NCBI GenBank assembly: GCA_009192285.1
Contig: CM018604.1
Coordinates: forward strand, 1,302,001 to 1,366,000
Length of the DNA: 64,000 nucleotides
Reading direction: 5' to 3'
From: Morchella semilibera
Lineage: Eukaryota > Ascomycota > Pezizomycetes > Pezizales > Morchellaceae
A program made the position numbers and the translations under genes. The notes under the pieces are model-generated. The model worked only from the letters and a program-made list of their open reading frames with translations. It ran no database searches and was not told where the DNA came from. Positions 9,430 through 59,555 of this stretch are shown here, piece by piece (within the stretch, counting starts at the first letter, position 1; every line of letters starts with the position of its first letter).

Positions 9430-11284
9430 TTCTCTTCTTCCTTTTCAGCATCCTTCCTTTTTGTTATGAATTTCCTTTATTTTGTTTCCTTTGTGTGATG
9501 TTTGGGGTTTTTGTTTGGGACTAATCGGTGTTTGGTATTTGGAATTTGGAGTTTTGTGTTTGGAGTATATACATGTAAATAGTAGTGCTACTGGTGTGTG
9601 TCTCAATGACCTTTGCAGATCGATCGTGACTGTATATAAGATGTACTTGTATGTCTGTTAGATAGGGCCTCGCTGAACAAGGCTTCGGCCATGAAAAAAG
9701 AAATATGAATAGAGTATATGAAGTATCGTCACTTGTTCTTATGCTGTCTTGTTGAAGATTGCCCGTGGGAGGTGGGACTTTGGTCGACGGCCACAGTCTG
9801 AAACACCTGAAAACGAGTCAATGATATTGAGTGCAACGCCATGCAAACCTAACCCTAAGTTGCCAACCAGCTCACACAGCGAGCCAGTCACCATCAACGC
9901 AACACTTGTGTCGTGATGGTGAGTAGTGACCGTGAGAAGAGATTAGGGAGGGGATAGAGAAATATGAAATTAAAAGAGAAGCAGAAAACCTGGGACACGG
10001 TTCTTTAGAGTAGGAGTTTGTCTGTGCGGACGGTTTTACCGGGTCGACACCAATGTAAGGTTCTTGTGGTCTGGGTCGGCCTTGGGACTGATTTTGAGTC
10101 GCCCTGTTTATGCTCTTAGCGGCAAGAATTAACCTATGCTATAGGTTACTGTAGGAGTGGACCGCATGCAGCCGTGCCCCACAGAACTGTGATACAGATA
10201 TCTGGTAATTACATCATATATTCACCAATCCATTGGTTTGCTCGTACCGTTGAGATTAACTGCACGTACGTGTTTTTTTTTGCTTTTTTTTAAAAAAAAT
10301 TAAGGTTTACGAGTGGGGAACTGCCGCACGGTGACCCGCAAACCAATGGCTGTGTGGTGTGATAGATATACGTACTAGGATAGATACATCTACATGCATA
10401 CTGCTACCAAACCTTCAGTGCCGTGCTGAGAATGCTTGAGCTGTGGAATTCATGTTTGTATTTGCGCATAATTATGGGATAAGGTATCAACCAGAGATAA
10501 ATATTTGGTTTCATTAGAGTAATTTTGTCCGAGTGATTGACTATGATGCACTTTCTAAGCAGATCGCATCAATGTACTACGAATTATAGATGACCACCAG
10601 CTACGGGTAAAGAACCAGGGGATGTAAGGGGCGAGGCTTTGTGTGTATGCCTTGCGTTAAAGAATTCGAGATGCCATTTCAGCCCAGGATAGAGAAAAAA
10701 TGGCCGAGTGATATGACATGGATTAAGCGATAACCAGTTAATTCAAATGTTGCGCCGAGAGCACTATAAGTAATACACATTGTAATTACATGTATGGGGC
10801 TACTAGACTTGCAAGATTGATATATGTATTTGGACCCCAAACCTCCCGGTAAGCAAAGCGTGGCGTGGTGATCGGTGGTGCGGGATTGATAGAGTTTGTG
10901 GTAGAGCGATTGACACTCTGCTCGTTATCACAGTTCATCGTTACACAAAGAGGAGACATGCCGTACACAGAGTGTTTATATGATGTGAATATCCGCTTTC
11001 ACCACTGTGCCCTAGCTACTCTCGTACGTAAAGTAGGGCAAAAATGCCATGCCCCAATCAGTAGACTTTGAATTGAGCCCGAGAGGAAAGCAGTCTCAGG
11101 GCCCTGCTGTACTGACATCAGTGCATAGGGTAAAGGATTGACTACAACTGCCCTTCCCCCCACACCCCCCTCCACCCCACACACGCACAAACATAAGCAC
11201 TAAGGCTCAAGAATCTACCCGTGATATTCCAGCCTCAAGCTCTCAACTCCAAACTCCTAATAATATTTCGAAAATTCGCCTAGT
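9430..11284. other. intergenic region, no recognised gene
   Basis: Contains the likely 3' UTR of the rhodopsin-domain gene (T-rich, 9430-9700), TACATGTA at 9570 and 10787, and two CGAGTGAY-family motifs at 10530-10547 and 10705-10722. Paired T- and A-runs occur near 10270-10300. No coding sequence with recognisable features. Confidence 0.5.
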
Positions 11285-13685
11285 ATGGATGGGTTTGAAA
11301 ATCTTGACCGTACTCAGAATATAGGGCCGATGATTGCAAATGCTGATCCCCCAAACCCACCAGGGAATTCGGGGGGGGAGCTTTGGCACACGATCATACC
11401 AGAGAGCTCGGTGATGGGGCTTCATTCAAGGCACCCTTCAAGGGGCCATGGCCCCATTGTCAACACTCCAAGCTCTCCGCTAAAATTTCCCAAGAGATTT
11501 TTCAATTTCCTCCTCATTGTCCCGACGGCCATCATCACTTGGCTCAACAACTTTCGGTTGATGATAGTCAGAGCTTCAATGCCCGCTATTCCGGTAATAA
11601 GACCTCCGATAACAGCCTTCGGTATGATAAGTGCAGCCTCGCCAGGTTGCTACCAACCGAACCGCTACCACGCTCAGGAATTTCGATTTAGAGCTACTCT
11701 AGTTCTAATTTCCGGTTTAATTCTGGTTGGACTTGATGCATCCCTCTTCGGTATGTTATATATCTGCTTCTATTGTCGATCTGTATATGCTCCTATGTAG
11801 TTACTGACCCATTGATAAATGTATAGCCAATGCAATCCCTAGCGTCACTGTTGAGTTTGGGTCCTATGAGGATCTAGGATGGTACGCTTCGGCGTACTTG
11901 CTGCCAATGGTTGTCCTTCAGCCGTTCTTTAGAACCATTTTTCGACTTTTCCTGAAACAGAGGATGTACCAACTATGCGTCATTATTTTTGAAGGTAGTA
12001 TTCTGTCCACATATCAAAACGCATTCCTAGTATGAAGCGTCCAATACTAACAGGGTTTTCTCATAGTTGGCCTGGTCGTTTCTTTTTTGTCGAAAAATTC
12101 GAGAACCCTCATAATTGGCCGCTCAATCACTGGCATTGGGGCGGCAGGTATCCTCCAAGGGACACATGCAATTCTGATGCTCTACTACCGACCTGAAGTT
12201 AGGGGCCGTAAAATCTCCTTAATTTTCAGTGTGATCGGGATCCCAGTAGTGTTTGGTCCGGTTATCAGCGGTGTCTCAACTGAGTTAAACTCTTGGAGAG
12301 TTTGTTTCGCATTGTAAGTCTAACTGGTCCTTATTAAACATCTTGCAGCACTGATACGCTGAAGGACCCCTGTTCTGGCGTTTTTCATAATCGTCTACCT
12401 AGTGTCGTTTGGTTTTACGCGGTACTCGAATGACTATGACCCAAATATGCCGTATGCCCAACGGTGGAAGGAGCTTAGATCGGACCTCTTTGGAGTGATC
12501 TTCCTGATTCTACCCCTGACTCTTGCCGTCACCGAGTTGCAATGGATTGGTACCATAAACAATTGGTCGGACAAAGAATCGATAATACTTGTGCTAGGCT
12601 TTTTGGGCTCCATAACGGTTTTTTGGGTTCTCCAGTTCTGGTCCGAAAATGCCACATTACCGCTCAGAGTTGCCGGGACGAGAGCTGTCATGGCAGGATC
12701 AATCTGCTTCTTTGTGCTTCAAATGGTTTTAGTAACAGTAAGTGTTATATTTAATCCTGTAGGGAGTGTGTATGAAAATCCATACAAGGCTAACTTAATG
12801 GAACTGACAGCACACCTACCTCATTCCAATTTACTTGCAGAGTATCGTAAGTTTCGGACCTATGTTCAGCGGACTATTCAACATGGTATACTATATGGCA
12901 GCTGTATTCGGATTTATTGTCTCCACCTTTTTAGTAAACCAGTATAGATTTGTTGTATGTCTTCATTTCTCTCTGGCCCAATCACCCTTACTAATAGATG
13001 ACAGCGTTTGGTATGTGTTTTGGGAACAACAATTATGGCATGTGGTTGTTGGATGCTTTCTACCCTGGATTTTATGTCCAGAATGGACCAGATTGTGGGA
13101 TATCAAATCTTGGCGGGCTTTGGAGTTGGGATGGTATTAGAATTACCGTTTGTATCAAACCCAGCGGTGTTCAGGTAAATTCCCATAGCCTTGTATATAT
13201 AGTCGTGATGCTGACGATCTTTCTAGACATGCGGATGTCTATAAGGCCAATATTTGTATTGTCCACCTTGGTATGATTGGCGGGTATGTCTTTTTTATCC
13301 CCTCTTCCTGTCATTTCCACTGACACACCACAGGGTTATGGCAATTCCCATTGTGCAAGCGATCATAAGTAATTCCCTTCTTGAGCGCCTGCCAGAGCTT
13401 ACTGAGGAGCTTGATCCGCGCTATATTCTGTCACTCGGCATCAGTGACTACGACACAATCCCGGGGCTATCTAAAATGATGAAGATCCTTGTGCTTAGGG
13501 CCATGTCAGATTCCATAAGAGACGCTTTTAGATTCGCCACTTTCGCGGCGTGTACTGCAATCCTTTCGAGTTTCTGGTTTGGTGGAAGACACGAAGTCGC
13601 GATACCACTGGCACCACCTATACCTCTAGTACCACTTGTCCCAGGGCCTCCAAGGCCCCAGGGCGCTGGGGCTAGTGTGGTTTGA
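11285..13685 (+). CDS. MFS transporter, DHA2/drug:H+ antiporter-like, possibly decaying
   Basis: Related to fungal multidrug or toxin-efflux MFS proteins. Proposed exons: 11285-11750, 11827-11994, 12067-12313, 12365-12737, 12841-12954, 13005-13174, 13227-13283, 13334-13685. Recognisable blocks are LDASLFGANAIPSVTVEF then LGWYASAYLL (TM1-2 region), GRSITGIGAAGILQG (TM4), FGPVISGV with SWRVCFAL (motif C region), FSGLFNMVYYMAAVFGF, GYQILAGFGVGMVLELP, and a C-terminal helix. Oddities: the first ~130 residues carry an extra hydrophobic stretch unlike the family. The loop and helix usually reading YYLPIYFQ between exons 4 and 5 are absent. LDASLFG replaces the usual LDxTIVA. Frame is kept across my junctions, but several are less certain than in the other genes, so gene decay or a missed exon is possible. 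Confidence 0.65.
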
Positions 13686-16600
13686 TTCTTTTTCTATAAA
13701 GCGTCGCTGGTGGTCTAGCATTTTTAGTAGGAACAGAAACCTTACTGGCAAGCCCACCACTTTCTGCTATGATAAAATCCATAATGACTTCAACAAATGT
13801 GTATTCATGTGCATAGTTTTCATGCGTCTGATTACCAGGCGTTTTTCTCCGTTTTTTCCCTTTCTTCTCCTTTTCTTTTCGTATCTTTGGCAAGCATTGT
13901 TATAAAAGTTTGCCAAGAGTTGTTGTCTCTAGACTGGATAGTTAGTAGATGCTTGTCGGAATAAAATAAAATGGCAGCATTGGAAAAAAAAAAAACTCGT
14001 TCTCTACTTCTGAGTTAATGCGGATAACGTGATAATACGGTATTGTAGAGAGATAGTCTTGGGGAATCCGTTGCGTGTGGCCTGTGGATCACTATAGTGC
14101 TTCAATATTGAGACATTAATAGACTAGAATTGACTTCGCTATAGATTCACTACAGTCATTAGTTGAAGAGAAGCTACATGGCCCAGCTCTTCTGATTAGT
14201 TTATGATCGGCTCGGCCAGTTATTTAAGGGTGATTGTTGCAGAGTGATATGACATGACGCAAATATTGAAGTCTGTCTTTTGGGCAAGTCTTCACGACTA
14301 GAGACATCAAGATGTGAAGCTAGAAGATAAACACTTAGATAAACAGTTTGAAGACTCACTGAATACGTTTTCGGCACTGACTCGGCGGAATCTCTATAGA
14401 AACACCTCGTTTATAGTATTAGCTCACAACACTTGACTATCCGGCAATAAAACGGAGAATCTATTGCCACAGTATCAGTTCCAGGTATCCAATTGTCCAT
14501 TTCATAGATGAGGGGGCGACAGGTGCAAACTTTTAGACCCAAACAGTTGTTTTCAGGCCAGAGCACAGTATCTACAAAAGTGACAGAGACCGAATGGGTT
14601 TCCTGACTGGTTTAGAATCAGTTTGGTTCTTAACAGAGTGGAAGAGCTTACATTGTTGCGGTGAGGGAACAGGAATCTTTGACATTCTAATTGGAAGTGG
14701 TAATAAACCGCGGTTACAAAGCCCTATGGTTCTCGTTCACCGGAGGGTAGTGAACATTAGAAAAAATCTTTATTAGAATAAGAGCGGTTTTTATGGTAGG
14801 ATTGAGGTGCAGTGTATCTTTGTGTGGTCAGGGCACAAGTGTGTTGTAAACCCTAATACATAACTCCGCAGTCACTCTTGGCACTTTGAAATACCCCCCC
14901 TAAGATTCTATGGCCCCAGTGATCCTGGTGATGTCACACCCCTAGAATTGACATTTTGATGCTCGAGACATGTGATATGTACTGACGGCTAGAATCCTTG
15001 GTCTCTCTAGCACTATCGAAGAAGTCTACTTCTTTGAAGCTAGTACTTGTAGCGGTAAAGCGATTTTATCACCACTGGAGAAAGACTTTACGCAAGGAAA
15101 GCATAGGCGGGTATTGGGGTCGAACTAACCGTGGAAAGTGTCCCTCTAGATATGATCTTATTTGATAACAGAGCCAAGCTCCGATAGGTTGGTCCTCGAA
15201 ATTGGTCAAGCAGCTATAAAGAGTTGGGCCACCAAAATATCTCAGATTTGGGCTACATTATGGATCACCTTGGGCTAGGTTTCCATGGACTGTCGGCAGG
15301 ACCGCGAAAAGGCTGGTTTCCACCTCAAGATAAGGAGGCATGTGCTTCAATTATAGAGGCCACTTATGGGAGAAATGTGGCAACACCATACTCCTAGAAC
15401 CCTTTAATTCTGGAAACGCACACAAAACATAAATCTGCTCACAGTAGAGGCTAGGCGAATGTCATTTTTGGATGAATAAGAGGCATAGACCTAATCACTC
15501 TGCAGAACCCACGTACATATATGTACGTGTAGCTACAAGTACATACATGTACTTACTATTTGCCTTGCCAGGTGACATGCAGACTCATGGATTCTCACTC
15601 GGCCGATAAGGCACTCATGTAATCAACCAACCACACCAGACAGACCGAATAAGAAATTAGTTGCATATCATGGCGTTAAAATGGGTCATGTTTATGGAGG
15701 GCCACTGATTGTTTCAAACCGCAAAAGATTGGCTGGTCCACTTAAGTCCTAAAGGCCGATCATGCTGCAGCGCCGAATGGTGATCGCTCTGCGTCACCTG
15801 GTTGCCTTCGAAATTTCAGCAAGTAAAAGAAGACCAAGACCCCTCCCACTAAATAAGCAGCTGGACTATAAAAACCCAGGCAACACCACCGCCTTCCCAG
15901 AAGCCTGTCAAAACCTCTCGAACTTTTGTTAATACCATAGATTGCGCTGGACAACCCCGATTGGACCCATCATGCGGTGTTTGTGCTTTCATATTGTACT
16001 GGTGAATCTCGCCAATGCCCGAGCTGTAGTGGATTCTGGGAAGCCCACGTTGAGTACTTGTTGCATAGCATGTGGTATCGGCCACAATGTGCGACCTAAC
16101 ACGAATTATAGAGAGCTATTAAACTGACCTGTGCCAGCTCACGATAAAGAGATAAGAATACAGAGGGGATCTCAGGGCTTGGCAATTCTTCTAGTAAGTG
16201 CTTTAAGGGTCTCAATTCATTAGCCGGGTATTGCCTTCCTCTCCGCATCAATATCCTCTTCGCCCGTGGTGATGGTACACAAAAAGCAAAGTGGGCCGCC
16301 TAAACGCTTGTCGAATCTGCAGGTGTACACAAAGGGTGTGTCTTAGGCACCAAATCGGATGCGTCACCAACTAAGTGTGGAAAGATTTTTCTTGTTGAAA
16401 AGAAACATAAAAGTTCGTAAATTTTCCCCTTTACTCCTTCCCTATCGCTGCTATCCTTCAAAAAATGAAAAGAAGAAAGAAACTCGTAAAATGCATCATG
16501 CAAATGCATATAAAAATACAACCCCACGAAAACTAAAACAGACGGTCATTAAACTGATAATCATATACAGCCCAGCAGCATCACAAAAGAAAACCCCAAG

Positions 16601-25700: not shown

Positions 25701-28700
25701 GTCCCGTCCAGCCGCCGTCTTCTTCTTCTTGTCCAAATATCCGAGTATCGGGTCTATTCGGCACCTTAGAATTGTTCGGCAGTGCGAGCTTGATTCAAAG
25801 CCCCTCCCGGTGCTTTTTCTGCTTTTTCTTGCGGCTGAGTTTGGAATCCCTCCCTAGTAAAAAGTGTTTGTATTATTAGGAGACTGCCTGAAATGGCTAG
25901 TTTAGCCTCTTGCCTATTATCCTGGAGAGATTTGTAACTATTCCAGATAACCCTAACCCACTATTTGACCATTCTGCTAATCTCCCCGGCCGAATGCCAA
26001 TCGATAAGAGTTTCCTAATTGATGCATCTCTCATGATAGATCATAAACCAGATAACGAGCTGTGCGTATCAGGATTGCCATAGAAGCTCTCGACCCCTCT
26101 GCTTCAGGAGAAACAACCCGAACGCTTGAAACCAAACCACGGACTCCTCGCCTGAGCGCGTGAGACCCGTGCGAGTCGTCAAAAAAGCAGGTTGACGTCG
26201 AAGATTTATGTAATGGCAGCAGCACAAGGCCAGATCCTGAAGCGCAAAGCCAGATCCGGGGACATTTTATGAGTGTAGGTTATGTACCCTTGAGGTTCAA
26301 ACGAAGAATGACATGACAGCCCCCACTGACTAGTGCCAGTGTGCTGAAAGTGCAGAAGTAGCTGAAGGGTGTTTGTTTTCCGAGGAAAGGCGCGGTGGGG
26401 GGGGGGGGGCATGGAAACAACCCATCCAGCGGGAGTGTGTGTGTGTCCATAGATGAAATGGATGAAGCTGAATGTTGGGAGGTGCGCTGGGGCGGCGAGA
26501 TACCGTTTTCATACTTACCCAACAATACTGGACACATACACAAGAGCACACAGTGGTGTTTGCCCGCAACATGGCCCCTTAGACTACGCTCTCCTCCAAC
26601 AAGCGAAAATACATATCCTTAGGCTTTGTAACACCCAAGAATGAGCTCTTGGCTCCATGGCTGGGCCCTGCTGGATGAAGGCGTTCCTCTTCGGGCCCTA
26701 GATGGCTGGCGAAAGATTTGAACCATTAACCTCTTCCCAAAGAGGTTCTAAAGCGTCGGAGTATCTTTACCAGGCGCAGTTAGTTCTTGGTATTAATGTC
26801 CCGCATGAGCATATTCGTGAGGAGTGGCCCAGGGCATGGGCTCGGCTCGTCCCCTTTTAATAGGCTCAGACTTTCAAAGTTTGGGATTTCTTATGAGTGA
26901 TATTCCGTGATTGAAACGTACGGTACCGGTCAATGAGGTTGAGACGTCAGGTGTCGGAGGAGCTGGGGATTGTCCCATTCTGTCAGGGATTTGATACCCG
27001 GATCGATCGGTCAGAAAAATTTTGTCTTGCCCAAATTTGGTTGTCAGAATGAATAGTCTATAGGCTCTACTAGTGAAATGCAAGAAAAAGATCTCTCTAG
27101 GATAGCACAATGTAAGATTGTGAGAAATAATCAGAACTGGAAGTCATGAGAATTTTGTCCAACATAAGATTAGTCAGAATCTGCTTGTACCAAATCCAGC
27201 GGCTGCCAGAAATGGCGGACTGCCCCAGCCTCATTGACCGGTATATATATACCTGGGGTGAAATTAAGTATTGTCCCAGGCCAACCGCGCTGGCAACCAT
27301 GCTATATATTTAATTTCACCGCAAGTACAGTATCTAGTTTATTCACATAACAAAGTTATTATTAATTTAGGAACACGGGACAAAGAATCTAGAAGTTTAC
27401 GTACTGTGAGAGGCCCCCGCCGAGACTCCCGCCAAAAACAGGTCCAGATAAGCCAATTCTTTACTGAATATATGTGGAGTATCACCTCAGATTCAAGATT
27501 CTGATGTAGGGAACTATGCATATGTTTTCAATTTCTGAGCCTCACGTCCCCGGAGATGATGGCGTGGGTTAAGGCTAGTGTTGCATATATGCAAAACGGC
27601 TGTAGGATTTAGTTTCCAATACCACCCCAGAGAACACCAGTAGAGTACATCATAGAGGGAATCCTAACCTATTTTACACCTACCCACGACTGAGCTGCAG
27701 TTCCAATTTTCAGGAGCGATGGCAACTAAGATTAACCTCAGAAAGGGGCACAGCTTAGAAACCCGTGATGCTACATACCAGCATCTAATGACAAACTATC
27801 CCCACACAGATAAGGTGAGCGAGGAACTACGACAAGCAAGGAACATCCCCCGGCCCCAACACAGTGCATTAATGCCCTGCACCACTAGGTGATTGGGTCT
27901 TGATTATATATCTCTGGGTTATTCTCCACTTATATCGATATTATCCGTGGGCCAACAACCAAGGGCCCCGGCGACTCCATCCCCCTGCCAGTCCCAAGAC
28001 TCCATGCGAATGGATATATGTTTCCGGGACCACCGGTATGTGGAGTAATTGTTTTATTCCAGATGATGTGTTGAGCCTCCTGTTCCTCCTTCGTCGCTCT
28101 AGTGGCCAGCACAGGAGTTTTGGCGGGCTAGGGGTAGTATACCCCATAGCCCTTGGATGTATAGATAACCATCCTCCTCCACCAGCAACAATCAGACGCT
28201 TCAAGAATTCAATCCTAAGAAGCCAATCTAGGGGTCAATAGACTGGAAGAACAACAAACTCTGCGAAACAACGCCCCGCAGCAGTGGCACCCACCTACGG
28301 CTCCCGGAAACCCCTGAGCTAACCAAGGCCACGGCAACCGAAAACGGTAACATGAACCGGTCATTGAACCCTAACGCCCGGCCGCCCGTCATTCCTAGCG
28401 AAAGGAACTACAAATATCTCTTCGATATCGCAAACGTGTGGTGCTTTAATCACAGGGTATCACTCGCTCGAACCATCATAGCTAGCGGAAGAACCCTACA
28501 CCGGTACAGAAACCAACCATGCAGATGGCCTACAGCAACCGGGTTTTGGGGTGCCCGTATTAGAGCTCTAGGCCACAGAACTGTAGAGGAGTGGAATTGA
28601 AATCCCCTGTCTTCTTTCTCGTCTGGTTGTGATAAGGCGGTGTTGAAGTTGCGTTCCGGTCCAAACATGTACAACGAATTAAGATTCCCGTAACCAACAA

Positions 28701-29275
28701 TAACTTACAATATGTAGTCCAGCACCCGGTAGCCTGAGAACCAAATTATCCTGGCCCATGAATAACTTGGCCAGACCGTCAACCACCGCCCTCTTTTCAA
28801 GAAGGCTACAGCTAGTGTAGTGAGAATACGGGATGAATTACTTATATCTCTACACATGCTACCCAAGGCCCAAAATGCACTGCTCCTGACTGACAAGAGG
28901 AACTGCCAACTAGTATTGTACTGCTTCTGCTACCTACCCAAGTTTCCAGTTTTGGCCTTGGGAATGGCACAGGAGAAACCCTATAGCTACATGTAGGCCC
29001 CCACCTGAGGAGAGAATACATAGTAGGATAGCAGTTGGGCAGGTTGGGTTCTTCCTCGCGTTCCAGCCCGGATGGAGGGGTGGAGTCATGTACCGTCACT
29101 CGCACGAGTGATGCGCCGTGATCTGCCGACGAGCAGGTTAAAGAGGGTCTTTTATACTTGATACGTGCGGGCAGGGAGGTCGGTCATGTCATGTGAGTCA
29201 TGTCTGCATTACTACCTGCCTAGCTAGCTATATTACTATATACAAAAAAAGAAAAAGGAGACAAAACAAAATAAA
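22757..29275. other. long intergenic region, no recognised gene
   Basis: About 6.5 kb. The first ~500 bases are probably the promoter and 5' UTR of the - strand disordered-protein gene. The rest carries G- and A-runs (including G13 at 26397-26409), TACATGTA at 28988, and motif-family copies at 26894-26911 (+) and 28449-28466 (-). A 57-codon ATG frame at 27719-27892 (+) was considered and not called. The end of this region is the 3' flank of TAF6 with the inverted motif pair at 29085-29122. Confidence 0.5.
29085..29122. repeat. head-to-head pair of the CGAGTGAY motif
   Basis: Two exact matches to CGAGTGAYNNNNYRTGAY start two bases apart and point away from each other: 29085-29102 on - (CGAGTGACGGTACATGAC) and 29105-29122 on + (CGAGTGATGCGCCGTGAT). 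The pair lies about 150 bases past the TAF6 stop codon. Confidence 0.75.
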
Positions 29276-33489: not shown

Positions 33490-33530
33490 CGAGTGATGCT
33501 GTGTGATGGAGGTTCATGGGGCGTCACTCG
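33490..33530. repeat. tail-to-tail pair of the CGAGTGAY motif
   Basis: CGAGTGATGCTGTGTGAT on + (33490-33507) faces CGAGTGACGCCCCATGAA on - (33513-33530), with five bases between them. Confidence 0.75.
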
Positions 33531-33551
33531 CTGGGTTAGGGTTTTTGTGGT

Positions 33552-35129: not shown

Positions 35130-35177
35130 CGAGTGATATCTTATGATACCATAACCAAGGTCATGGGATATCACTCG
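35130..35177. repeat. tail-to-tail pair of the CGAGTGAY motif
   Basis: Both arms match the consensus exactly: CGAGTGATATCTTATGAT (+, 35130-35147) and CGAGTGATATCCCATGAC (-, 35160-35177). They are separated by 12 bases and form a 48-bp imperfect palindrome. Confidence 0.8.
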
Positions 35178-36590: not shown

Positions 36591-36640
36591 GATGTCGGCG
36601 AAGGTGGTTCTTGGCGATGTCGGCGAAAGTGGCTCTTGGC
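36591..36640. repeat. two-copy 25-bp tandem repeat
   Basis: Two adjacent 25-bp units, each starting GATGTCGGCGAA and ending TCTTGGC, with two differences between them. Confidence 0.85.
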
Positions 36641-36754
36641 ATTCAATCCACCAGCTATATCTAGGACCATCAACCTCCCTCTGTTTTTTGTTTCCTCACA
36701 TCACACACACCCCTCTACTCTTGCCTATGCGTAGGAGTACAGGGGTGTAGCTCT

Positions 36755-37907: not shown

Positions 37908-37987
37908 TACTACGGGTGTAGGGGTAAGTCTGGCGGCAGTAAAAACTGTTACAACCACGGCCAGACTTACCCATACACCCGTAGTAC
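37908..37987. mobile_element. 80-bp foldback element
   Basis: Inverted arms of about 28 bases with one mismatch, each starting GTACTACGGGTGTA, surround a ~24-bp centre. No coding capacity. This may be a small MITE-like element or a strong hairpin. It shares no sequence with the foldback at 33718-33831. Confidence 0.55.
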
Positions 37988-38205
37988 TACGTGTATACTC
38001 GCAGAACTATAGGACATGACGTTATTGTGACGACAACACATGTTTCCCTGGGCCCTCGGACATATCTAATCCGTCACGCAGTCACGTTGCAACAAATACA
38101 GGTTCGAGAATCGATGTTCCTCCATGGTTGTCACATTTTCCCTTTTTTATTCTGACCTACCAAACTACAAGAAGAGATTTCTTGAACCATATCACCCTAA
38201 TGTTA

Positions 38206-38234
38206 GTCTGTCTGACAGTCTGACAGTCTGACAT
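38206..38234. repeat. three-copy TCTGACAG tandem repeat
   Basis: Short 8-bp tandem repeat in intergenic DNA. Confidence 0.85.
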
Positions 38235-38676
38235 CCTGTCTACTATTTAGGGAACCTAGGCTTGTACCTAGACTCCGAATAGCCGTTGGTACTTGATCTA
38301 GACCGACAGAACAGAACGCCACCAGCGTAGGGGGCTTGGGTTCCCGTGCCATACATTACACGTAATCCTTACATTTAAGGGATTATAAGCAGATATGTAT
38401 TCTTAACCCCCCCCCCCCTTTTTTTTCTCCCCCCCTTTCATCATCTATACAATTAAACACTGCCTCCTACCAAATATCGATCCCAAAGCAATAAACGGTC
38501 AGCAATTTTCGAATTTGACTGAAACTTGGTTGACTGGCTGGCTATAGTACAAGAGGGATGCCCTATATCCCTATATAACACAGTCACATACTAGTAAGTA
38601 GCTGTGTGTGTAGCTGAGAAGCAGTCATAGGCACAGTGGTTGACCCCGATCCTAGGCAAGCAATGCGTTCAATATA

Positions 38677-38729
38677 CGAGTGATTCGCTATGAAGTGGCA
38701 AAACAATTGCACTCACAGATTATCACTCG
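38677..38729. repeat. tail-to-tail pair of the CGAGTGAY motif
   Basis: CGAGTGATTCGCTATGAA (+, 38677-38694) and CGAGTGATAATCTGTGAG (-, 38712-38729), 17 bases apart. Both deviate from the consensus only at the final base. Confidence 0.7.
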
Positions 38730-38809: not shown

Positions 38810-41528
38810 TAAGGGATTACACAAATAGCCAGGCAGAAATTATCCCAGAAGATGTGCACCTGTCTACACCATGTCCAGATGTGATCCGCGTGGCGCTCGG
38901 TCCTTCATATACCCGTGCCACTTTCGCGCCGGGGTCTTCCTTGACCTCAGCTCCCACCAACTTGTCTCCCGGAACATTGACTCTATTATCATGGTTTTAA
39001 GATCTGCGATAGTGATCGTGTGCAACATCAACAAGGAAAACAACCAACAAGGATTCGCCATGGGTATGGTACCTCTCTAATCCAGGCCACGATGACATCT
39101 ACCACGTAAGTTCATGCAGCCTTTTCTTTATCACAAATCTAAGGCTATTATATAGGGTAATGGCTGAGGTATATAGTAATATAGGCATATCTTCTCACTG
39201 CAGCCGGTGTAGGTGGTAATCAAGAGGCATAAGATCTATAGGTCATTTATTTAAGCGCCGAAATAGCTAGGATAAACGCTCTGGTAAGGCTCACTGTACC
39301 ACAAACTTAGCTTAAAACCTGGGCGTAGCTGATTTATCGATAAGATGATGGAAAAATGAAAACACACTCATATGAGGGGCGATGAAGACATACATCGGCC
39401 CGGGAATACTTTCTCTGCTCATGCAGCACTGACTGAGGCCCAACTGGAGACTTCTGACCCTCTTTAACTTTAGGTATCAATAATTTGACCCCATCCAAGG
39501 GCTCGAGTTTACGCCGGAAGGGAGACTTCTGACGACGGGTTGTCGGGAAAACTATACCTGCTACAGTAAGGTCCTCCGGGTGGCTGGGAATCAATAGCAC
39601 TTTACAGATCCACACAAGTCTCGCAGGGGTTCCTACCGACTAGACGGATATTATCGCCAAATACCACTCTCTGCCGATAAAGGTGCCGTTATTTATGCGG
39701 TGGTCGGATCGCATAGGAATGCGTTCTTGGTTATTGCATATTGCATATCTCAGGCATAGGGGGGAAATACCGGGCCATTGGACATGTTTTGGATACCTGC
39801 CAGCTTCTAGAATGCAAAATTTATTTCCCCTGATAGGGTGCAAGCGCAACCTCTGCTCGTTAAGTGGATAATGTGCGTGGTGTTGATTCTCCAGTGCCTG
39901 TTTCTATGAAACTCTGATTCTCATCAGTTGTCCATGTTTTAGAGGTGGGGGGGGCAGTGGTACCGATGTGTGATGTGCAATGTCTGAGGTTTCTCCCGCG
40001 CGTTCGCGTAGGCTAGGTGGGGAGTTCATCTGAAGAATGATGTTGAGGTTTTTGTCTCACATGTAGGTGCTAGGATGCTTTGGACTCTTTTAGTGATTAC
40101 AATCCCCCCCACTTGATTTCTTCAGTGGGGATTTAACCCCGTTCCAGGAATCTCCCGATAATAGGGCGCTCTAGGTGATCTATCAATCAATAAGGAATTT
40201 TGCATCATAGTAGTTTTTTATTTGCAAGCCATGTTCTCTGCCCTTGGCCCAATTAATGCTATGGACTCTAACTCTGCTAGGTAAACTATATATACTGATA
40301 TACGCCAACTGCAAGGCGCTGCATAAACATCTGAATAGCGGCCGATCAGCCCGGACTTTGAGACCTCCACAGCCAATTGAGTTGTTTCTCCCTTGGCCAC
40401 GGTCCTCTCCAGAGCACCAGCCAGCAGGTCCACCTAGCTAACAGTCTTCATTGTCGCTTCCCCCGTTTCACCAAGCCCCTCGAGACCTCGGTCTCAGTAA
40501 CCTTTCAAAGACGTGCATATACCCGCCAAACTAAAATTACAAAATAAAAAATAAAAAAGAGCTACCCATCTACCACGATTGCGTATACGTTTATTCTCCG
40601 GATGTGGCTTTTGCACTGAGACTGAAAGGTATTTGGAATAGTGGGGTCGGAGACGCTCAGACTCACAAACTATACCTCGCGCTTTGCACTGCAGTACTGG
40701 GATCTTCGAGCTCGATCAATAGACTCTACATGCATTCCCGCTTCGCGGAACGGGGGTTCAGCGGGCAGACATGGTCTTTGGATAGTGACTTGTACCCGGT
40801 GCCCACCGAGTCGGGAGGAAGGGGAGGGGGGTCAGATTCATACTTTGAAAGCATGGCCAATTAAGGTCCCTAGCTAGCTAGCTAAGTATGTAACTGATCC
40901 AGCGCGCGATGCCACGAAACGGTTACCGGCGAGCCTTCAGTACGTACAGAAGTGGTGAGTAATCGTGTGCGCCACAGCAAGCCGTCCACAGCATATATGT
41001 ACTGAACCACATGGAGGTAAGACAGTAAGGGGTATGTCGAGGACTAGGGCTGAAACCAAAGACGATTACCTGCTGAACTGGCGATGGCGGAGGACAATGC
41101 TTTTGCATCGGTCTGGACGATGAGGGTGAGTGATATGGTGTGATCCGGTAGAGAGGTCCGAAAATGCCTTGCTTATGGATGATTATGAGAGCTATTTGGT
41201 CATGGCATTTGACGAGCTTCATGTAGATGGTGATAGTCTAAATCTTAGTTTTTTACAGGAGAAAGCTTTACCGTTCAAAACATTTTCTCTTCAAATTCCG
41301 AAGCTGAGATATAACAATACGTACATGTACATACATGGCCCTCATGGACCGACTACATATATATAAACGCGGCAGACGTACATACATTTACCAATAAAAG
41401 AAAAACATTCAAAAACTTTCCAAGACAAGAGAAATAAATGGATAAAACCCCCATGAATCAAGAAGCCCCCCCCCCCCCCAGACAAAAAAAATAGAATATT
41501 TAAATGTGATAATCTCAAAGAATCAGGA

Positions 41529-43073
41529 TCAAAAATGGACAAGGTTGCAGAGCACCTTGGTTACTCTAGTGCCGCGAGCTCTCCACTTACGGTTATCCTG
41601 CTCGACATACTCTTCCTTAATGAATTCGAGGAACTTTAAAACGTCCTCAATGGTAGTCATCGCACCAAGCGAAACCCTCACTGCACCAGTCGGCTTCCCG
41701 TCCATGACGTCGTAGCCGTCACCACACACATGTCCGTTCTTGAAATTCCTTTCCATCTCTTCCCCCGAGAGCCCGCAGAAGTGGGACACCCCACCAGGGT
41801 TGCAATGGCCACCGGTGCGGATGTGTATCTTCTTGCGTGCAGCAGCAGATTCAACACCCGAGTAGCCAATCCATTTACCGTTAGCTGAACGGAGGTTGAA
41901 TGTGATAACAGGCCCTTGGGTATGGGCGTTGGAATACTCGCTTTCGCAGTAGAGATCAACAACCCTGATGCCGGTCTTTGGGTGCACTAGGGCCGACATC
42001 CTTGCAGCAAGGAAAGCTGCGAGTGATGTCGTGTGAAGTGAGATCTGCGCGAACCCGCCAAACATCTTGGAATGGCATGTCATGGCATACCCCAACGCAA
42101 TTATGGCATGGAAGGCACATGTACCGTCCTCAAGGAAGTCATGTGGGTGCCCGTTGGTTTTTTTGACCACCCAGTCCTTGTTGACAATAAGGGAGTCCAC
42201 GGTTCCACCACCGAAATAGCGGCGGGATAGGAGGACCTTTGCGGACTCCCGACGGACGATGAGGGCACCAAGGTTTGGGAAGCCAAACATCTTATAGAAG
42301 CTCAAGGACATAAAGTCGGGTGCCTCCGAGGGGTTGCTCAAGTCGATTGGCTTGGTCATTGCAAGGGCTGCTGCGTCAAATAGCGAGTAATAGTTTACAT
42401 GTCGACTGCGGAGCAAATTGGACCATTGATTCTGCGGGAGACGGTGGCCGGAGAAATTGGATTGGCCTGGCCAGGCAAAAAGGCCAATCTTACTTCCCTC
42501 TCCGGTGAAGGGGGTCTTTTCTGACAATAGCCAAGATTCGGTCTCGTTTTCGGAGTCGAAGCAGTGGGAGGATTCTGCCAATTCTCGGACCCCCACGAGG
42601 GATGTGTGGACGTCTCTGTGATATCTATACTCAAATCCACCAGGGTGCCCGGCAAATGAGTCTGCTACTAGCTTGATTGCAGCAGTGGCATTGGCACAGA
42701 ATACAACGTCGTACTCGGCCGGGTCGGCATTGAAGAGCTTCAGGACCTGGAGACGGACAGCTTCTACTCGCTCTGAAGACAATGCTGAAGACGGGTTGTG
42801 GGAGTGTGGGTTTCCATAAAGGTTGTTCAGGAGATCTTTTGTGAAAGACTTTACGAGTGAACTACTATACAACGTTGTTCCACTGTGGTCAAGGTAAATG
42901 GCATCTGGAAGAACTGTTAGGACTAATTCTATCTTGAAATATCAGATATTGGCGCAAGGTTTCCCCACTCACTCACCTCTAAGCTGTGGGTATTCGTCCC
43001 TTCTTATCTTCTCCACCTGTGAGTTATATCCTTGATCTATCAAGTCTCTTTTTCTGAAGAATGGGGGCTGCAT
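41529..43073 (-). CDS. PLP-dependent class V aminotransferase, MOCOS N-terminal-like
   Basis: NifS-fold, pyridoxal-phosphate enzyme most like the sulfurase (N-terminal) domain of molybdenum cofactor sulfurase. Exons 43073-42977 and 42904-41529 sum to 1,473 nt, giving 490 residues. Landmarks: YLDHSGTT near residue 36, GNPHSHNPSS, VVFCANATAAIKLVADSF, the PLP-binding Asp in SLFDAAALA (~D209), and the presumed Schiff-base lysine K237 in SLSFYKMFGFP. GGGTVDS, HIRTGGHCNPGG with the sulfurase-type cysteine, and RVSLGAMTT follow. The protein ends about 40 residues later, so the MOSC domain of full-length MOCOS (hxB type) is absent. It could persulfurate another acceptor or act as a different Cys-handling enzyme. 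The intron donor gtgagt and acceptor ttccag rebuild the conserved N-terminus. Confidence 0.88.
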
Positions 43074-48507: not shown

Positions 48508-49449
48508 ATCTTTACTTTACTTGAATACGATTACGAGTATTTTAGTTGGGTGCAGACGAAAGTGGAGAGTGTGCCAATTTTTTTTCTTCGTTTTGTTGGA
48601 ATTTGAATCTATACCCGTCACTTTTTAATAGAGCGAATATGACGAATACGGATGGTTTAAAAGGTGATCGAAAAAAGGGTGTAATGCTCCATAGTCTTGA
48701 CTAATTTCAAACGTGTGCATTGCTTTATCAAACTGGCCATGGTTCGTGGTGACCATCTATCCTGAGGCAAATGCGAACATGTGACCCTTGTTATGTTCAA
48801 TCGATCGAGTGACAGGTCATGACAAAAACAAAACATCTATCACTCACAACCTAGGAAAGGAACCTCAAACTTATATAGCCTATTTTGACTTCTAAGCTGT
48901 GGCGAGCTTTGATTGACTCTTCGAATTGACAATGGGTTGTAGCTGACACAGCCCCCCTAGCATAGTCAAATCAAATCACTGCGCCTCCCGCGTCCTGGTG
49001 ATGCTGTTTGTGCCTATAATTTGGCTCCTCCGAAGAACTATACCTCGAATACTCCATATCAACACAAGAAGATTCTTGACATTTAGCATATGTGCTATTT
49101 CTAATGTACTAGATCACGCCAAAACGTAACTACATGTAGCCGATACGATACGCCTGTGGAACATTTTCTTCCTTCCGTGCAGTCGCTGTTGCGTGTGATA
49201 TCTTTCGTGGTTTATGAAGACAAGGCTCAAAAACATTGCTCGTATAGAAGGTAAAGTACAATTACCCGACCCCGCCAACAAGAAACCCTCTACCATGTCT
49301 GCCTTGATAAAAGCGTCGCGATCTTCTGCACCCAAAAGCTGAAAGCTAAACACCTATCAATACGCCAATAACACATATAACAACCTACTCTCCACCTGAG
49401 AACCTCCTTCCTCAATACATAACCCACCCCCAAACAGAAAGCAGTGATC
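48508..49449. other. intergenic region
   Basis: Holds the beta-tubulin 3' flank, an exact CGAGTGAY motif at 48806-48823 (+) with a weaker opposing copy near 48838, and TACATGTA at 49131. No gene seen. Confidence 0.5.
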
Positions 49450-50851: not shown

Positions 50852-53800
50852 GCGGTCGTGTGACCAGGAGGTGAGCAGGTCATACATCATCACTCGGTGC
50901 TTTCGAACGAGGCATAACTAAGTCAAAAATCGACCTACGTTCCAAGGAGTTTCCCCCGAATCGGGCAATCATAAAAACTAATACAAAGCCTCTAATAAAT
51001 GTGTTTTTCAGCAATATATACTGAGTTGTTCGAAACCTAATTGTTTAGTTGTTTTCTAAGTACTTGAGTAACGCTACAATGGTAAGTAATCTCTCAAGAT
51101 TATGAATAGCCAATGATATTTGGACTCTATATCTGTTTTGTAGCGGGTACACACAGCCTTGCATCGCCGCGTGGACGAAAAACCCCTGGGTGGGGCAGGT
51201 GGCTGTGGACTAAGCGTCTCTATGGTAGCAGTGCACGAGAGTTGATTGGGATGAATGGAAATTATTGAACCATGCAATATTGGAGAAAGCTTGATCTTGT
51301 ACTCTGCTGCCTCACAACCCGATTTCGAGTGATTTCTATGTATTGGTTAAACCGTAAATGTAACCCAACTCCCGTTTTTTCAAATATCCTTAAGGTCTGT
51401 ATAACCGTGAATTGAACACATTTGCCCTAGGATTGCAACGACCCTGTGGAAAGCCGTCTACTAATCGCACCACTGGTCAAATAAAGGTATCATCATAAGA
51501 TATGATAATGTTAATGCCAGCAAACTCATCTCTTAATCAACCTCAACTAAATGTGAACATTCTATTAGCTATGAACCAAGTGAAATAACCACCTATATGC
51601 GATCAGTGTATGATATTATGTGGATATGTGGATATGTGGAACCAATAACCAACCAATCAATTAACGGCCTAATGCATAAATCGTCAGAAAAATACTAAGC
51701 CTACATATCCTCCAACGTACCACCCCGGCATATTATCGATAACAAATATTCTAAACATTTTCCCTTAGTATATACGCAGCTCATAACTGTAGAAAGCATT
51801 CAGCCGGCTGCTTCGCTGTTCCGCTGCCATCTCAAAACTTTAATAAATTAGGGCTGATACTGTAGACTTTAGGTTGCACATTCGGAGAAAATATTCCAAA
51901 TAGGAATTATGTCCCTAATTATCATATTCGTTTACAAAGAGTCACAGCCATTTATGCTACGGCTAAAGTCCACTTTGGGGGGGGAGTGAGATGGCGATGT
52001 GGATTACATATATTGCCTGTCGATTGACCCGATTTTGACGTGTCTATATTTGGTGTTTGTGCCACTATAAACTATAAGCGCGACTGTTCTTTAATCCCTA
52101 ACAAAGGTTAACCAAGTGTACAAAAGGTTTCAAACAACGTTTAGTATGTGGTAGGACTGAGGCCAATACACAAGTTCTATTGGTTCCTGGTGGGGGCTAG
52201 GATCTGATCTTCCTCCGTGTCCTATACCTCGGCCCTAGGACTAGCGAGTGATAGTCTATGATAAAGGTAGATACGTGTAGACTCGCGATCACAAGTGGTG
52301 AAATTTCTGTCTCCTCTGCTCGAGATCAAACCACATACAGGTCAATTGCGGATGTCTGAGAGGAAATAGTTCCTTTCAGTCACACTCTAAGAATTAGCTT
52401 GCGGTTACTCAAGTTCCACATGCGTTGAACACATTACTCACTTGAAACGGGACTTCCGTCGTATTTATTCTCTTCAGATTGATGAATACCATGAATTTGC
52501 TTGAATCAACCCTACGGAATGACGTAAATCGGGTTACATAGGCCGCACAATTCTCAGACCTATCTGTCGACTCGATCCCTGGAATAAGCTAGATCATTAT
52601 AGATCTATATATACTATAGCACCACCAAGTTAATTTGGATGAGAAGCTGCCGATATGAAAAGAAAAAAGAAAAAGAAAAAACTCGGGACCGGATTTAAGA
52701 GAAGTGTGCTTACCGTAAGTCAAAGAGGCCGCCCTCTCCACAAACTATACAAAGCACATCCCCCCTCCCATGTGTAACCACGAGCTACACACACGTTCCG
52801 ACCCGAGAACTACTTGTTGGCATGAGAGGCCAGATTACGGATCTGGTCTATACATGGTTTTGTGGCGCACTGCATGTGCATGAGTACATGTTGATGCACA
52901 GGTCTTTATGCATCTTTATGCCGGTTATCCACGAAGATCTTTTGTTGGTTCTCCTTCGAATCCTTATTTTGACCCAACAGCATCTGACCTTGTGCTGGGG
53001 TGGAAGATACAGGTCCTCTGATGTCGTGACTGTGACTTTGATGGGGGGTCACGGTGCGTTATCGTCGTGTGGGACGGTGCTGAGGTCTCAGAAGGCTTAT
53101 TTGATACAACCAGCTGTAGCTCTAACCCTCTCTACACTTGGCTAGGCGCGAACCAGTGAGATTTCATATACATACTGCACGGATCGAAAAATTTGGAACT
53201 GCTACTTTCACGACGACCTACCTTGATTGAGCTATCACTTGCTATTCGCTCGACGCCCATCTTACCTGACGATTTGTTTCCTGTCTGCTGATGCGCAATC
53301 ACAATACTCCCGGGAGCCCGTGCAACTGCTTAGACTTCTGGTCATGTTATGGCCGGAGGAATACAACACCGATTTTCACCGCCGGGTATACCCCCACCCC
53401 AAGCAGCGAGGGAGGAACCGCCCACTAGAAGCTACTTCCCTCTGTATAGCGACCAAAAGGGATCTCCCGCCCCCCTAGAAGCTGTAAGATGGATTCCACC
53501 AACTACACCCCTGGGTAGCACGATAGATGATAATCGTGAGTATAGCTACTGCAAAAGGTTGCTTGAGGGTGGCTTTCAATCGAGAGTTTAGTGGTGAGTT
53601 GAGAGCCATCAGATTAAGAGTTGCAGAGAAGTATCTAAGGGTATAGTTACAATCCTACAAGGATTAAGCGTATTTGGTTATACATGTAGTTGCATAAAGT
53701 GTCACCCAGGTATGTGGCCCAACTTGTTCCTTATTTCCTAGACCTCTACACTACACAACCCAAAACAGCAACTAACCTCAGTATTTCCAGGCTTTAAAAG

Positions 53801-54596
53801 GCAATGACCATCAATATTGAACTAAACTCCCGCACCGCAACAACGAGAGTTTATGGCTCATCATACTTCCGCCTAGAACCGCTATCCCTCCCTCAACCAA
53901 TGTAGAGCTTACATCAGGGCTCTTCTTTAACCGAGCCTGAAGGCGATGCAGCACCATGGCGAAAAAGGGATTGCTAGCTGCAAGCAGCAAACGACAAACA
54001 TAATCGCGGGTCTCCGCCATGAACATCTCTAAGGTTAGATCGTCTCACTACGATAGATATTACTATAATTAGGGTGTAAGGACTCTATCGGGGGAAGTAC
54101 GGCCTGAAGAGTGCGGAAACGCTATCCAGGGAAACCCGGCGATATTGCCCGTGAGATTATCTGGTTGGTGAGCTTGGTCTAGCATAAAGCGCTACCATAT
54201 GTATATACATACATGTAGCTAGTGTTTATGGAGAAAGGAAGAACACCTTGTGCTGGAGCGCGCTGTTATCAATGGTTTTTTCCTCAGTATTGAGGCCCAC
54301 TGTTCTCAAAAAACACACCGAGTGATACCGCATGATCATAATAACACCACCCCACAACCACACGACCTAACTTTCCAACCCCCAAACCCATCACTTTCAA
54401 ACGGCCCCCACGACCAAGACAAGACCCCTGTAACCAAACTCACCCAACCCCTAACCCACTCGCCCCGCCGCGCCGGGTAACGTCATACTGCAAACTTCCC
54501 ACCCACGGTCCGGTACGTACGTACCTACGGTCAAGTGTACCTAAACAAACACAACCTCCCCATCCAAACATCTACAGCCCCGTAGAGCCTTACACA
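50852..54596. other. intergenic region, no recognised gene
   Basis: 3.7 kb. Motif-family copies lie at 50879-50896 (-, just past the hydrolase stop), 51326-51343 (+, one base short), 52245-52262 (+) and 54319-54336 (+, ~260 bases before SAM50). TACATGTA is at 53681 and 54210. A Pro-rich frame at 53349-53591 looks faintly protein-like but has no family match. Confidence 0.5.
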
Positions 54597-58083: not shown

Positions 58084-59555
58084 GTGGCCTCTTCTTGTCT
58101 TTTTCTTTCGCTCCTTCTGTGTCGGTTCCTTTTTTTCCCTTTCTTTTTCGCTTTTCTTTTGTGCAAGGAGAGTAATGATCTAGGGCCTAACTCTTTATTT
58201 ACTCCTTCGCTCCCTATATCTGTAGCTAACCAATTACTGCGTCTACATCAACTTCTACTACTTACTGGCTAGCCAGCCAGCCAGCTTGTACTTCTTTCTT
58301 TGTGTTTTCCAGTTATTGAACCCTCTTTTCTCGATTCTAGATATGGTAGTTAGTATTTCTTCTCGCGGTTTTGTCTCCTTAGTGCTGGTGGGTGGTCGTG
58401 GTGTCTGGGCTAATAAATTGGAAATCTCTCTCTCTCCTGAACTATTTGCCCCTCTTTTATTGCCGTGTTAGCAGTGCGATATGGTATGCCAGGGCAGAGC
58501 TGGTTTAAATTTTAGCAATATGAGTGTTTCTTACTAGCATATATGCAGTTCTGCTGGATGCTGTGAGCCGTTAGTGTTTTGTGTGGTAGAGGATGTGCGA
58601 GTGATGTTCTGTGATTGATTATTTAACCGGAGATTGATACTTCATACATTACATGTATGTATTTAACCGAGCGGTTAATTGAATCCGAGAGTAATGGGGA
58701 GCGAGTGGCCTTGGGGGTCTTGGGGATGAGTGAGTCCCTGTGATTCAGTAGGACTCTGAGCTTATGCGCTGGTCACTACACTACGCGCACGTAAAGTACA
58801 TAGTACTACTACGTACGACTGTATCGTAACGCTCTACTGTCAAAACTCACGGCCTTTCGGGGCCAAATGCACTAGGCTCGACTAGGCCACAGGTGGAAGG
58901 GCCCCACCTTAGCCACGACTTTTATTCTACTACATGTAAGTACATGTATGTATACATAAGGTATAGACATGTATAATCACATGTACTTATATTTGAGCTA
59001 GCTAGGAGATTAGGGGTGGTAACCAAAGGGATATTGAAGATGGGTTATATTGAGCTTTCGTAAAGTAGGATGTTCTGCAACAAATTCACCGTGGCTGATA
59101 TTAATATAATTATATAAGGGTGCACGCCCTATCGCGCCTGGTAAGGCAGACCGCCCAAATAATGGCATAGCTGTGTAGAGGGACTCACTCGGACCCACAA
59201 TGTCTGGAGGTCGTGTATGTGATACGCGGACCTGGTTTTACTACATTGTACTAGTGGATGGGATGTTGCACTGGCAGTAGTACTACATCGTGGAGCTGTC
59301 TTGTGGTCTTACCGGATATCAAGTGCCGCAGGAATTGGGAACATTTATAATGAAATATACTCCTCCCCCACTCAACTTGGCAGAATATGCACCATGTTCA
59401 AAGCACCAAAATCCGGCCTACAATTTGTAGTCCACTCCATCTCACTAACTTAAAACCTTAATAATCCACATAACCGAGAATATTCCCAACACCGCTCACC
59501 TCAGCGCGCCTACTTAATCAACAAGTCAATCAGTCATTCCAAAAACCGCTCAGGA
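58084..59555. other. intergenic region between convergent genes
   Basis: Probable UBC6 3' UTR, then motif copies at 58598-58615 (+, exact) and 58727-58744 (+, variant TGAGTGAG). TACATGTA is at 58650, 58931 and 58941. No gene seen. Confidence 0.5.

What the first reader, a model, noticed from the sequence alone, without database searches (positions are those of the whole stretch)
10530..58744. Dispersed 18-nt motif CGAGTGAYNNNNYRTGAY, about 20 copies, all between genes
Exact matches to this consensus: 10530+, 28449-, 29085-, 29105+, 33490+, 35130+, 35160-, 48806+, 50879-, 52245+, 54319+, 58598+. One- or two-base variants: 7069-, 10705+, 14241+, 26894+, 33513-, 38677+, 38712-, 41127+, 51326+, 58727+. 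The fixed positions carry about 24 bits, so chance would give well under one copy in 64 kb. None lies in a called exon. The sequence is two RTGAY half-sites exactly 10 bp apart, one helical turn, preceded by CGA, with the middle free to vary. That looks like the site of a DNA-binding protein or a constrained recognition sequence rather than a decayed transposon, whose copies would share more flanking bases. I do not know a described fungal element with this form.
Basis: seen in the sequence. Interest (0 to 1): 0.86.

Follow-up and report, generated by a model that had tools for sequence, protein, structure and literature searches.

The report
Morel genome's thousands-fold 18-base intergenic motif
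The morel genome carries thousands of copies of one short, precisely spaced DNA word between its genes, which looks like the docking site of an unidentified protein that binds chromosomes genome-wide.

Summary
The assembly matches Morchella crassipes in total length, scaffold number and length of its first contig. The exact consensus occurs 4,617 times in 56.76 Mb (reversed-pattern control 1; about 7 expected from composition) and 9,677 times with up to one mismatch (control 120). Spacing is rigid: 39 copies with N3 and 18 with N5, against 4,617 with N4. Flanks carry almost no information, single mismatches avoid the core (5 of 35 against 71% expected), and no target-site duplication of 3 bp or longer was seen. 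Copies avoid coding DNA (1 of 57), lean weakly towards gene 3' sides, and the CGAGTGA half occurs in tandem and inverted pairs more often than estimated. So it is most likely a selected binding site, not a decayed repeat: the site of an abundant two-module DNA-binding protein acting as a general chromatin, boundary or regulatory factor. The protein and its function are inferred. Six literature searches aimed at the motif listed no description of it. Conservation in other morels or truffles could not be tested here.

The parts
10530..10547 (+). exact copy
28449..28466 (-). exact copy
29085..29122 (.). divergent pair of exact copies (29085- and 29105+), about 0.2 kb from the 3' end of the TAF6 gene
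33490..33530 (.). convergent pair: exact 33490+ and one-mismatch 33513-, outer span 41 bp
35130..35177 (.). convergent pair of exact copies 35130+ and 35160-, outer span 48 bp
38677..38729 (.). convergent pair of one-mismatch copies 38677+ and 38712-, outer span 53 bp
48806..48823 (+). exact copy, about 0.5 kb past the likely end of the tubulin gene
50879..50896 (-). exact copy
52245..52262 (+). exact copy
54319..54336 (+). exact copy, about 0.6 kb upstream of the first called coding segment of the Omp85/Sam50-type gene
58598..58615 (+). exact copy, about 0.5 kb past the end of the ubiquitin-conjugating-enzyme gene
7069..7086 (-). one-mismatch copy
14241..14258 (+). one-mismatch copy
26894..26911 (+). 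one-mismatch copy
41127..41144 (+). one-mismatch copy, about 0.4 kb past the 3' end of the aminotransferase gene
42020..42037 (+). one-mismatch copy inside the aminotransferase ORF, antisense: the only one called coding among the 57 copies with 0-1 mismatch in 264 kb
10705..10722 (+). two-mismatch match; weak evidence alone
58727..58744 (+). two-mismatch match; weak evidence alone

Best explanation
The motif is the recognition site of one abundant sequence-specific nuclear protein (or a small family of paralogues). It reads two RTGAY half-sites on the same face of the helix one turn apart, plus a fixed 5' CGAG. The four bases between face away from the protein and are nearly free. With roughly 0.8 near-consensus sites per gene, outside coding DNA and not concentrated next to start codons, it most likely acts as a general regulatory or architectural factor: it keeps a local stretch nucleosome-free, or insulates or delimits transcription units, in the way budding-yeast Abf1/Reb1/Rap1-type factors or animal CTCF do. 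Shown: abundance, rigid spacing, sharp boundaries, mismatch avoidance in the core, coding avoidance, clustering of the CGAGTGA half. Inferred: that a protein binds it, that it is one factor, and the chromatin or boundary role.
For: 4,617 exact copies, reversed control 1, about 7 expected. 9,677 with up to one mismatch, control 120, against 11,565 predicted genes. N3 39 (control 8) and N5 18 (control 1) against N4 4,617. Flanks at most 0.16 bits per position, core positions 2-7 and 15-16 near-invariant. Mismatches in the core 5 of 35 against 71% expected, p = 4e-12. Coding: 0 of 26 exact and 1 of 31 one-mismatch copies where 24% of bases are called coding, p = 3e-6 for 1 of 57. Pairs of the 7-mer CGAGTGA (not of the whole motif): tandem 356, convergent 92, divergent 99, against roughly 69, 34 and 36 estimated from the local density of the 7-mer; reversed-pattern controls 25, 2 and 1. 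Tandem pairs peak at the abutting 18-bp offset (16 of 100 listed) and convergent pairs at outer spans of 25 (8 of 50 listed; here one whole motif is followed at once by the inverted 7-mer) and 43 (9 of 50). A search of 4-mer dyads in 246 kb of non-coding DNA, with A/T runs and low-complexity dyads left out of the listing, shows the motif's dyads among the strongest beside TACATGTA- and GTAC-type words. Two motif-bearing regions of one repeat element keep the motif, with changes only at degenerate positions 8 and 14.
Against: No binding, chromatin or expression data. No second species could be searched, so conservation between species is untested. The binding protein is not identified. Gene-context evidence is weak: 16 of 48 clusters lie within 1 kb of a gene 3' end against 9.9 expected given non-genic position (p = 0.03), and 6 within 1 kb of a 5' end against 9.4 (p = 0.15), on crude gene calls. 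In the repeat element the ungapped block that holds the motif is 28 bp at 86% identity, so the motif is not clearly better kept there than the few bases beside it. Seven of the 20 sampled 10-kb stretches of contig 1 hold no copy with 0-1 mismatch, and repeats were shown in only some of them.
Confidence: 0.62

Rival explanations
1. An ordinary promoter or enhancer site of one transcription factor with a very large regulon.
For: Short degenerate bipartite site, clustering of its 7-mer half, non-coding location; the motif is kept ahead of two diverged gene-like regions of a repeat element.
Against: Not seen to concentrate upstream of genes: 6 of 48 clusters within 1 kb of a 5' end against 9.4 expected (p = 0.15), with a mild excess at 3' ends. 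About 24 bits of specification and about 0.8 near-sites per gene are unusual for a specific regulon.
Confidence: 0.22
2. Remnants or termini of a mobile element (miniature transposon, solo terminal repeat, excision footprint).
For: Inverted pairs of CGAGTGA exist (92 convergent, 99 divergent); one multicopy element carries the motif at two places; 2-bp flank matches 7 against 3.3 by shuffling.
Against: Flanks unrelated; no target-site duplication of 3 bp or longer (1.3 expected by chance) and no inverted flank complementarity in the copies with complete flanks out of 65; 49 distinct N4 among 65 copies; mismatches do not fall at random; no copy with 0-1 mismatch in the three stretches with retrotransposon ORFs, L014, L020, L021.
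Confidence: 0.05
3. The site of a transposase-derived (CENP-B/pogo-type) DNA-binding protein, whose two helix-turn-helix units read a bipartite site of about 17-18 bp.
For: The architecture (two half-sites, free centre, about 17-18 bp) resembles the CENP-B box as recalled; the genome has 44 matches to the Tc5-type HTH family PF03221, 17 of them in open frames above 350 codons.
Against: The letters differ from the CENP-B box (recalled TTCG..A..CGGG). No link between any of the 44 matches and the motif was found. Dispersed intergenic sites rather than a centromeric array.
Confidence: 0.12
4. An RNA-level signal (terminator, processing or export element).
For: Mild excess near gene 3' ends.
Against: No clear orientation bias relative to called genes: within 1 kb of 3' ends 11 same-strand and 8 opposite, within 1 kb of 5' ends 4 and 2. 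No Rfam match in the window. Tandem and inverted pairs of the 7-mer both occur.
Confidence: 0.04
5. A site for replication, recombination or meiotic pairing machinery rather than transcription.
For: Genome-wide, without clear orientation, intergenic.
Against: No positive evidence; a recombination-hotspot site would be expected to erode by biased conversion, whereas these are strongly kept (inference).
Confidence: 0.1

Closest known systems
Abf1 sites of Saccharomyces cerevisiae (general regulatory factor; CGTNNNNNRNGAB, SELEX form TATCGTATTGCATGAT, PMC12305957 passages)
   Same: Bipartite site with a free centre of about 5 bases and a 3' half that reads RTGAY; as recalled, genome-wide intergenic use and chromatin organisation.
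   Different: The 5' half is CGAGTGAY, not CGT; at the place of Abf1's CGT this motif has GAY. Total 18 bp instead of about 13. As recalled, Abf1 is confined to Saccharomycetaceae.
CENP-B box / pogo-transposase-type sites (recalled)
   Same: About 17 bp, two half-sites, free centre.
   Different: Different letters; not satellite-bound.
CTCF or PRDM9 sites of animals (recalled)
   Same: Long, sharply bounded, thousands of dispersed copies; CTCF-like orientation pairs.
   Different: Zinc-finger motifs of other letters; no such factor is known to me in ascomycetes; loop or boundary function untested here.
Miniature inverted-repeat elements
   Same: Some copies form short inverted pairs.
   Different: No shared interior, no target-site duplication of 3 bp or longer; only 8 of 65 copies have the next copy within 100 bp (1.4 expected).

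Membership tests
Sequence-specific DNA-binding-protein site (any) | Fixed core at a fixed spacing, sharp boundaries, selection against core changes | tested here: met
Sequence-specific DNA-binding-protein site (any) | Direct binding by a protein | not testable with these tools
   no experimental data on hand
General regulatory factor site (Abf1/Reb1/Rap1 type) | Dispersed genome-wide, numerous relative to genes, non-coding | tested here: met
General regulatory factor site (Abf1/Reb1/Rap1 type) | Promoter-proximal placement | tested here: inconclusive
   no sign of it: 6 of 48 clusters within 1 kb of a 5' end against 9.4 expected, p = 0.15, on crude gene calls
General regulatory factor site (Abf1/Reb1/Rap1 type) | Nucleosome-depleted footprint | not testable with these tools
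   no MNase or ATAC data
Abf1 site proper | CGT five bases before RTGAY | tested here: not met
   those positions are GAY in the consensus (Abf1 consensus)
CENP-B box | TTCG....A..CGGG letters (recalled) | tested here: not met
   consensus letters differ
Transposon or MITE remnant | Copies share sequence beyond the motif | tested here: not met
   flank information at most 0.16 bits per position in 56 copies; the repeat element is an exception of at most about 80 copies
Transposon or MITE remnant | Target-site duplication | tested here: not met
   no flanking duplication of 3 bp or longer; 2-bp matches 7 against 3.3
Structured RNA family | Rfam match | tested here: not met
   0 matches at gathering score in the window

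The most novel reading that the evidence does not exclude
Morels carry a genome-wide chromosome-organising code: an 18-bp rigid bipartite site, nearly one per gene and placed between genes rather than at promoters, read by an undescribed protein that marks transcription-unit boundaries. It would be a fungal functional counterpart of CTCF, with paired sites (abutting tandem, or inverted at set spacings) as its cooperative form.
Probability: 0.25. Interest if true: 0.9.

Novelty: new variant of a known kind. Interest (0 to 1): 0.72.

Why it matters
If a single factor occupies some 4,600 to 9,700 sites, it is probably among the main organisers of the morel genome, and its motif is strong enough to find the protein by a simple pull-down. 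It would give a handle on gene regulation in an edible-fungus genus, and would test whether filamentous fungi have a CTCF-like or Abf1-like system of their own. The rigid spacing gives ready-made negative controls (N3 and N5 versions).

Tried and rejected
Mobile element: rejected on flanks, target-site duplications, N4 diversity and mismatch spectrum.

Covariation of positions 8 and 18: looked strong in the first 100 copies (15 of 22 C8 copies have C18, against 16 of 78 T8 copies), but genome-wide it is small (418/489 against 1,367/2,343, the last by subtraction; odds ratio 1.5, p = 4e-7). I do not read it as two distinct binding forms; local base composition may explain it.

Comparison between contigs C9 and C10 as alleles: the 9,881 bases compared are identical, so no polymorphism test was possible there. 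A repeat copy elsewhere on them matches a query at 86% (C9:768247) and 99% (C10:768321), so they are not identical throughout; this was not followed up.

CENP-B-type candidate proteins: 44 family matches, no link to the motif. A tandem cluster of CGAGTGA lies about 2 kb from one of them (C1:4006093 and C1:4004060), but my own rough estimate from 44 matches and 356 tandem pairs is that about one such neighbour is expected by chance.

Hairpin/RNA reading: no clear orientation bias relative to genes.

Literature: six searches aimed at the motif or its kind gave no description of it in their listings; three more were for the species and for Abf1-type factors. One search returned 3,706 papers holding the 7-mer, of which only the 20 listed were seen.

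Not possible: a search of other morels or truffles (the genome tool states that this genome has no relatives here) and homologous-protein search.
Full report
What was checked. In the window 28 matches occur with up to two mismatches against a shuffle mean of 3.66; the two-mismatch class is near noise and I lean on the 21 copies with 0 or 1 mismatch. One of these, 42020+, is inside an aminotransferase ORF on the other strand, so 'none in an exon' is almost but not quite right.

Where it is. The assembly has 56,756,124 bases in 23 contigs, and its contig C1 has 7,341,407. Table 1 of PMC7014384 gives 56,756,124 bases, 23 scaffolds and a longest scaffold of 7,341,407 for Morchella crassipes (abstract and passages read). 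That paper predicts 11,565 genes. The window is C2:1302001-1366000.

How many. Exact consensus: 2,280 + 2,337 = 4,617, reversed-pattern control 0 + 1; 6.7 expected from base composition. With one mismatch allowed: 4,787 + 4,890 = 9,677, control 53 + 67. Some contigs are at least partly copies of each other (C9/C10 identical over the 9,881 bases compared; C12/C13 and C21/C22 share matches at near-equal coordinates), so true counts are somewhat lower.

Spacing. With three free bases instead of four the count is 39 (control 8), with five it is 18 (control 1); both lists include pairs on the near-copy contigs. Of 75 CGAGTGA words in 264 kb, 48 have RTGA exactly 13 bases after the C; every other offset from 7 to 29 has 0 to 3.

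Anatomy. In 56 copies with 0-1 mismatch and complete flanks, information is about 1.6-2.1 bits at positions 2-7 and 15-17, 1.24 at position 1, 0.9-1.0 at positions 8, 13 and 14, 0.25 at position 18, and at most 0.16 at any of the 30 bases on either side. The four free bases show weak preferences (A first in 57 of 100 listed copies; 0.1-0.3 bits at positions 9, 11 and 12).

Constraint, not decay. In 304 kb (which includes 10 kb of C9 chosen because it holds a pair), 65 copies were found, 30 exact. The single mismatches of the other 35 fall at position 18 (17), position 1 (9), position 8 (3), position 17 (2), and once each at positions 2, 4, 6 and 13. Only 5 of 35 are in the nine core positions where uniform decay predicts 71% (p = 4e-12). 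No flanking duplication of 3 bp or longer was seen (1.3 expected by shuffling), 2-bp matches were 7 against 3.3, there is no inverted flank complementarity, and 49 distinct N4 occur among 65 copies. These results speak against a transposon remnant.

Inside a repeat element. One multicopy element, found because two pairs of listed copies had the same letters, carries the motif twice; a search with its first motif region gives 41 matches, some partial. Its two motif-bearing regions keep the motif with changes only at degenerate positions 8 and 14. The ungapped block around it is 28 bp at 86% identity, so this shows that the motif was kept, not that it was kept better than the bases beside it. 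At two per element this accounts for at most about 80 of the 4,617 copies.

Setting. Coding DNA: 0 of 26 exact and 1 of 31 one-mismatch copies, where a self-trained HMM% of bases coding (p = 3e-6 for 1 of 57); of the 22 two-mismatch matches 5 were in called coding DNA, as expected of noise. The HMM was crude: in that version it called the tubulin exon on the wrong strand, and it was retrained on Pfam-confirmed exons for the context analysis. The three sampled stretches in which ORFs with reverse-transcriptase, integrase, RNase H or gag domains were found (L014, L020, L021) have no copy with 0-1 mismatch. But 7 of the 20 stretches of contig 1 have none (also L018, L022, L024, L025), L018 holds a WD40 ORF, and L024 and L025 were not searched with Pfam, so depletion in repeats is suggested, not shown. 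L022 and L023 share many diverged repeats and hold none and one. The gene-context test left out L014 and L020-L023 as repeat-rich, L029, and stretches without a called gene; it used the window and 13 of the 20 stretches (194 kb, 48 clusters): 16 clusters lie within 1 kb of a gene 3' end against 9.9 expected given non-genic position (p = 0.03), and 6 within 1 kb of a 5' end against 9.4 (p = 0.15). This is a lean, not proof.

Pairs. These counts are of the 7-mer CGAGTGA, not of the whole motif. Tandem pairs (start offsets 18-47) 356, convergent 92, divergent 99; reversed controls 25, 2, 1. From the local density of the 7-mer about 69, 34 and 36 would be expected. Tandem pairs peak at 18 bp, exactly abutting (16 of the 100 listed), and convergent pairs at outer spans 25 (8 of 50 listed) and 43 (9 of 50); at span 25 one motif is followed directly by the inverted 7-mer. 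By eye, the N4 of most listed tandem neighbours differ, which argues against simple local duplication, though C1:5477752 is a 23-bp minisatellite. For whole motifs with 0-1 mismatch, 8 of 65 copies have the next copy within 100 bp against 1.4 expected. This window holds 3 of the 92 convergent pairs within 5.2 kb (33490-38729), where 0.10 are expected in 64 kb (p = 2e-4).

Unbiased view. A search of 4-mer dyads in 246 kb of non-coding DNA (low-complexity and A/T-run dyads left out of the listing) brings up TACATGTA- and GTAC-type words and the dyads of this motif.

Mechanism. Two RTGAY half-sites in direct repeat 10 bp apart put both on one face of the helix; the centre would be free because it faces away (inference). 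The rigid spacing (N3 and N5 each under 1% of N4) fits a protein with two rigidly joined modules, or a tightly packed dimer. Abundance of the order of the gene number, no clear orientation bias relative to called genes (within 1 kb of 3' ends 11 same and 8 opposite, of 5' ends 4 and 2) and the lack of a visible promoter focus favour a general chromatin or boundary factor over a specific regulon. The protein is unknown. Zinc-finger, Myb-like and CENP-B-type modules would all fit (inference from recalled families); the genome has 44 matches to the Tc5-type HTH, none of which I could tie to the motif.

Comparison. Abf1 of budding yeast (CGTNNNNNRNGAB; passages of PMC12305957) is the nearest in form that I know: a free centre and a 3' half RTGAY. 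It differs in the 5' half and length, so the motif is not an Abf1 site. Six literature searches aimed at the motif or its kind listed nothing describing it; only listings were seen, except for passages of PMC13208314, abstract and passages of PMC7014384 and passages of PMC12305957.

Limits. One species only; the sequence used for statistics was 304 kb at most, beside whole-genome counts (the word and dyad scan used the window, the 20 stretches and L033-L035); the 8 targeted 3-kb loci L001-L008, the C10 stretch L030 and the element L031-L032 were left out of those statistics. Whole-genome listings show only the first 100 places, mostly from the first contigs. Gene calls are approximate; no experimental data. 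My estimate that it is a selected protein-binding site of some kind is about 0.9; that the factor is general or architectural rather than an ordinary regulon, about 0.6-0.65.

Noticed in passing
window 33490-38729: Three of the genome's 92 convergent CGAGTGA pairs sit within 5.2 kb of one another in one large gap between convergent genes (expected 0.10 in the window).
   Followed up: partly
contigs C9/C10, C12/C13, C21/C22 of the assembly: These contigs appear to be near-copies of one another (C9 and C10: 2,071,371 and 2,071,177 bases, identical over 9,881 bases compared), yet a repeat copy differs between C9 and C10 (86% and 99% to one query); alleles, assembly redundancy or real duplication.
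   Followed up: partly
non-coding DNA of the window and loci: TACATGTA-type words are strongly over-represented (TACATGT 289 times over both strands of 246 kb, 211 expected, and dyads such as TGTA-N2-TACA 84 against 14).
   Followed up: no
C12:821129- and C12:821166+: Two of only 18 N5-spaced copies in the genome form a divergent pair with starts 37 bp apart (also on C13), which may mean that an alternative spacing works when both partners share it.
   Followed up: no
L031, L032 (C1:2154801-2158800, C1:2855501-2859300): A multicopy repeat element with two diverged gene-like regions, each preceded by the motif.
   Followed up: partly
C1:5477752-5477827: A 23-bp minisatellite built on the motif.
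   Followed up: no
window 59556-61830: PIF1-like helicase ORFs on the minus strand, possibly a mobile-element helicase.
   Followed up: no
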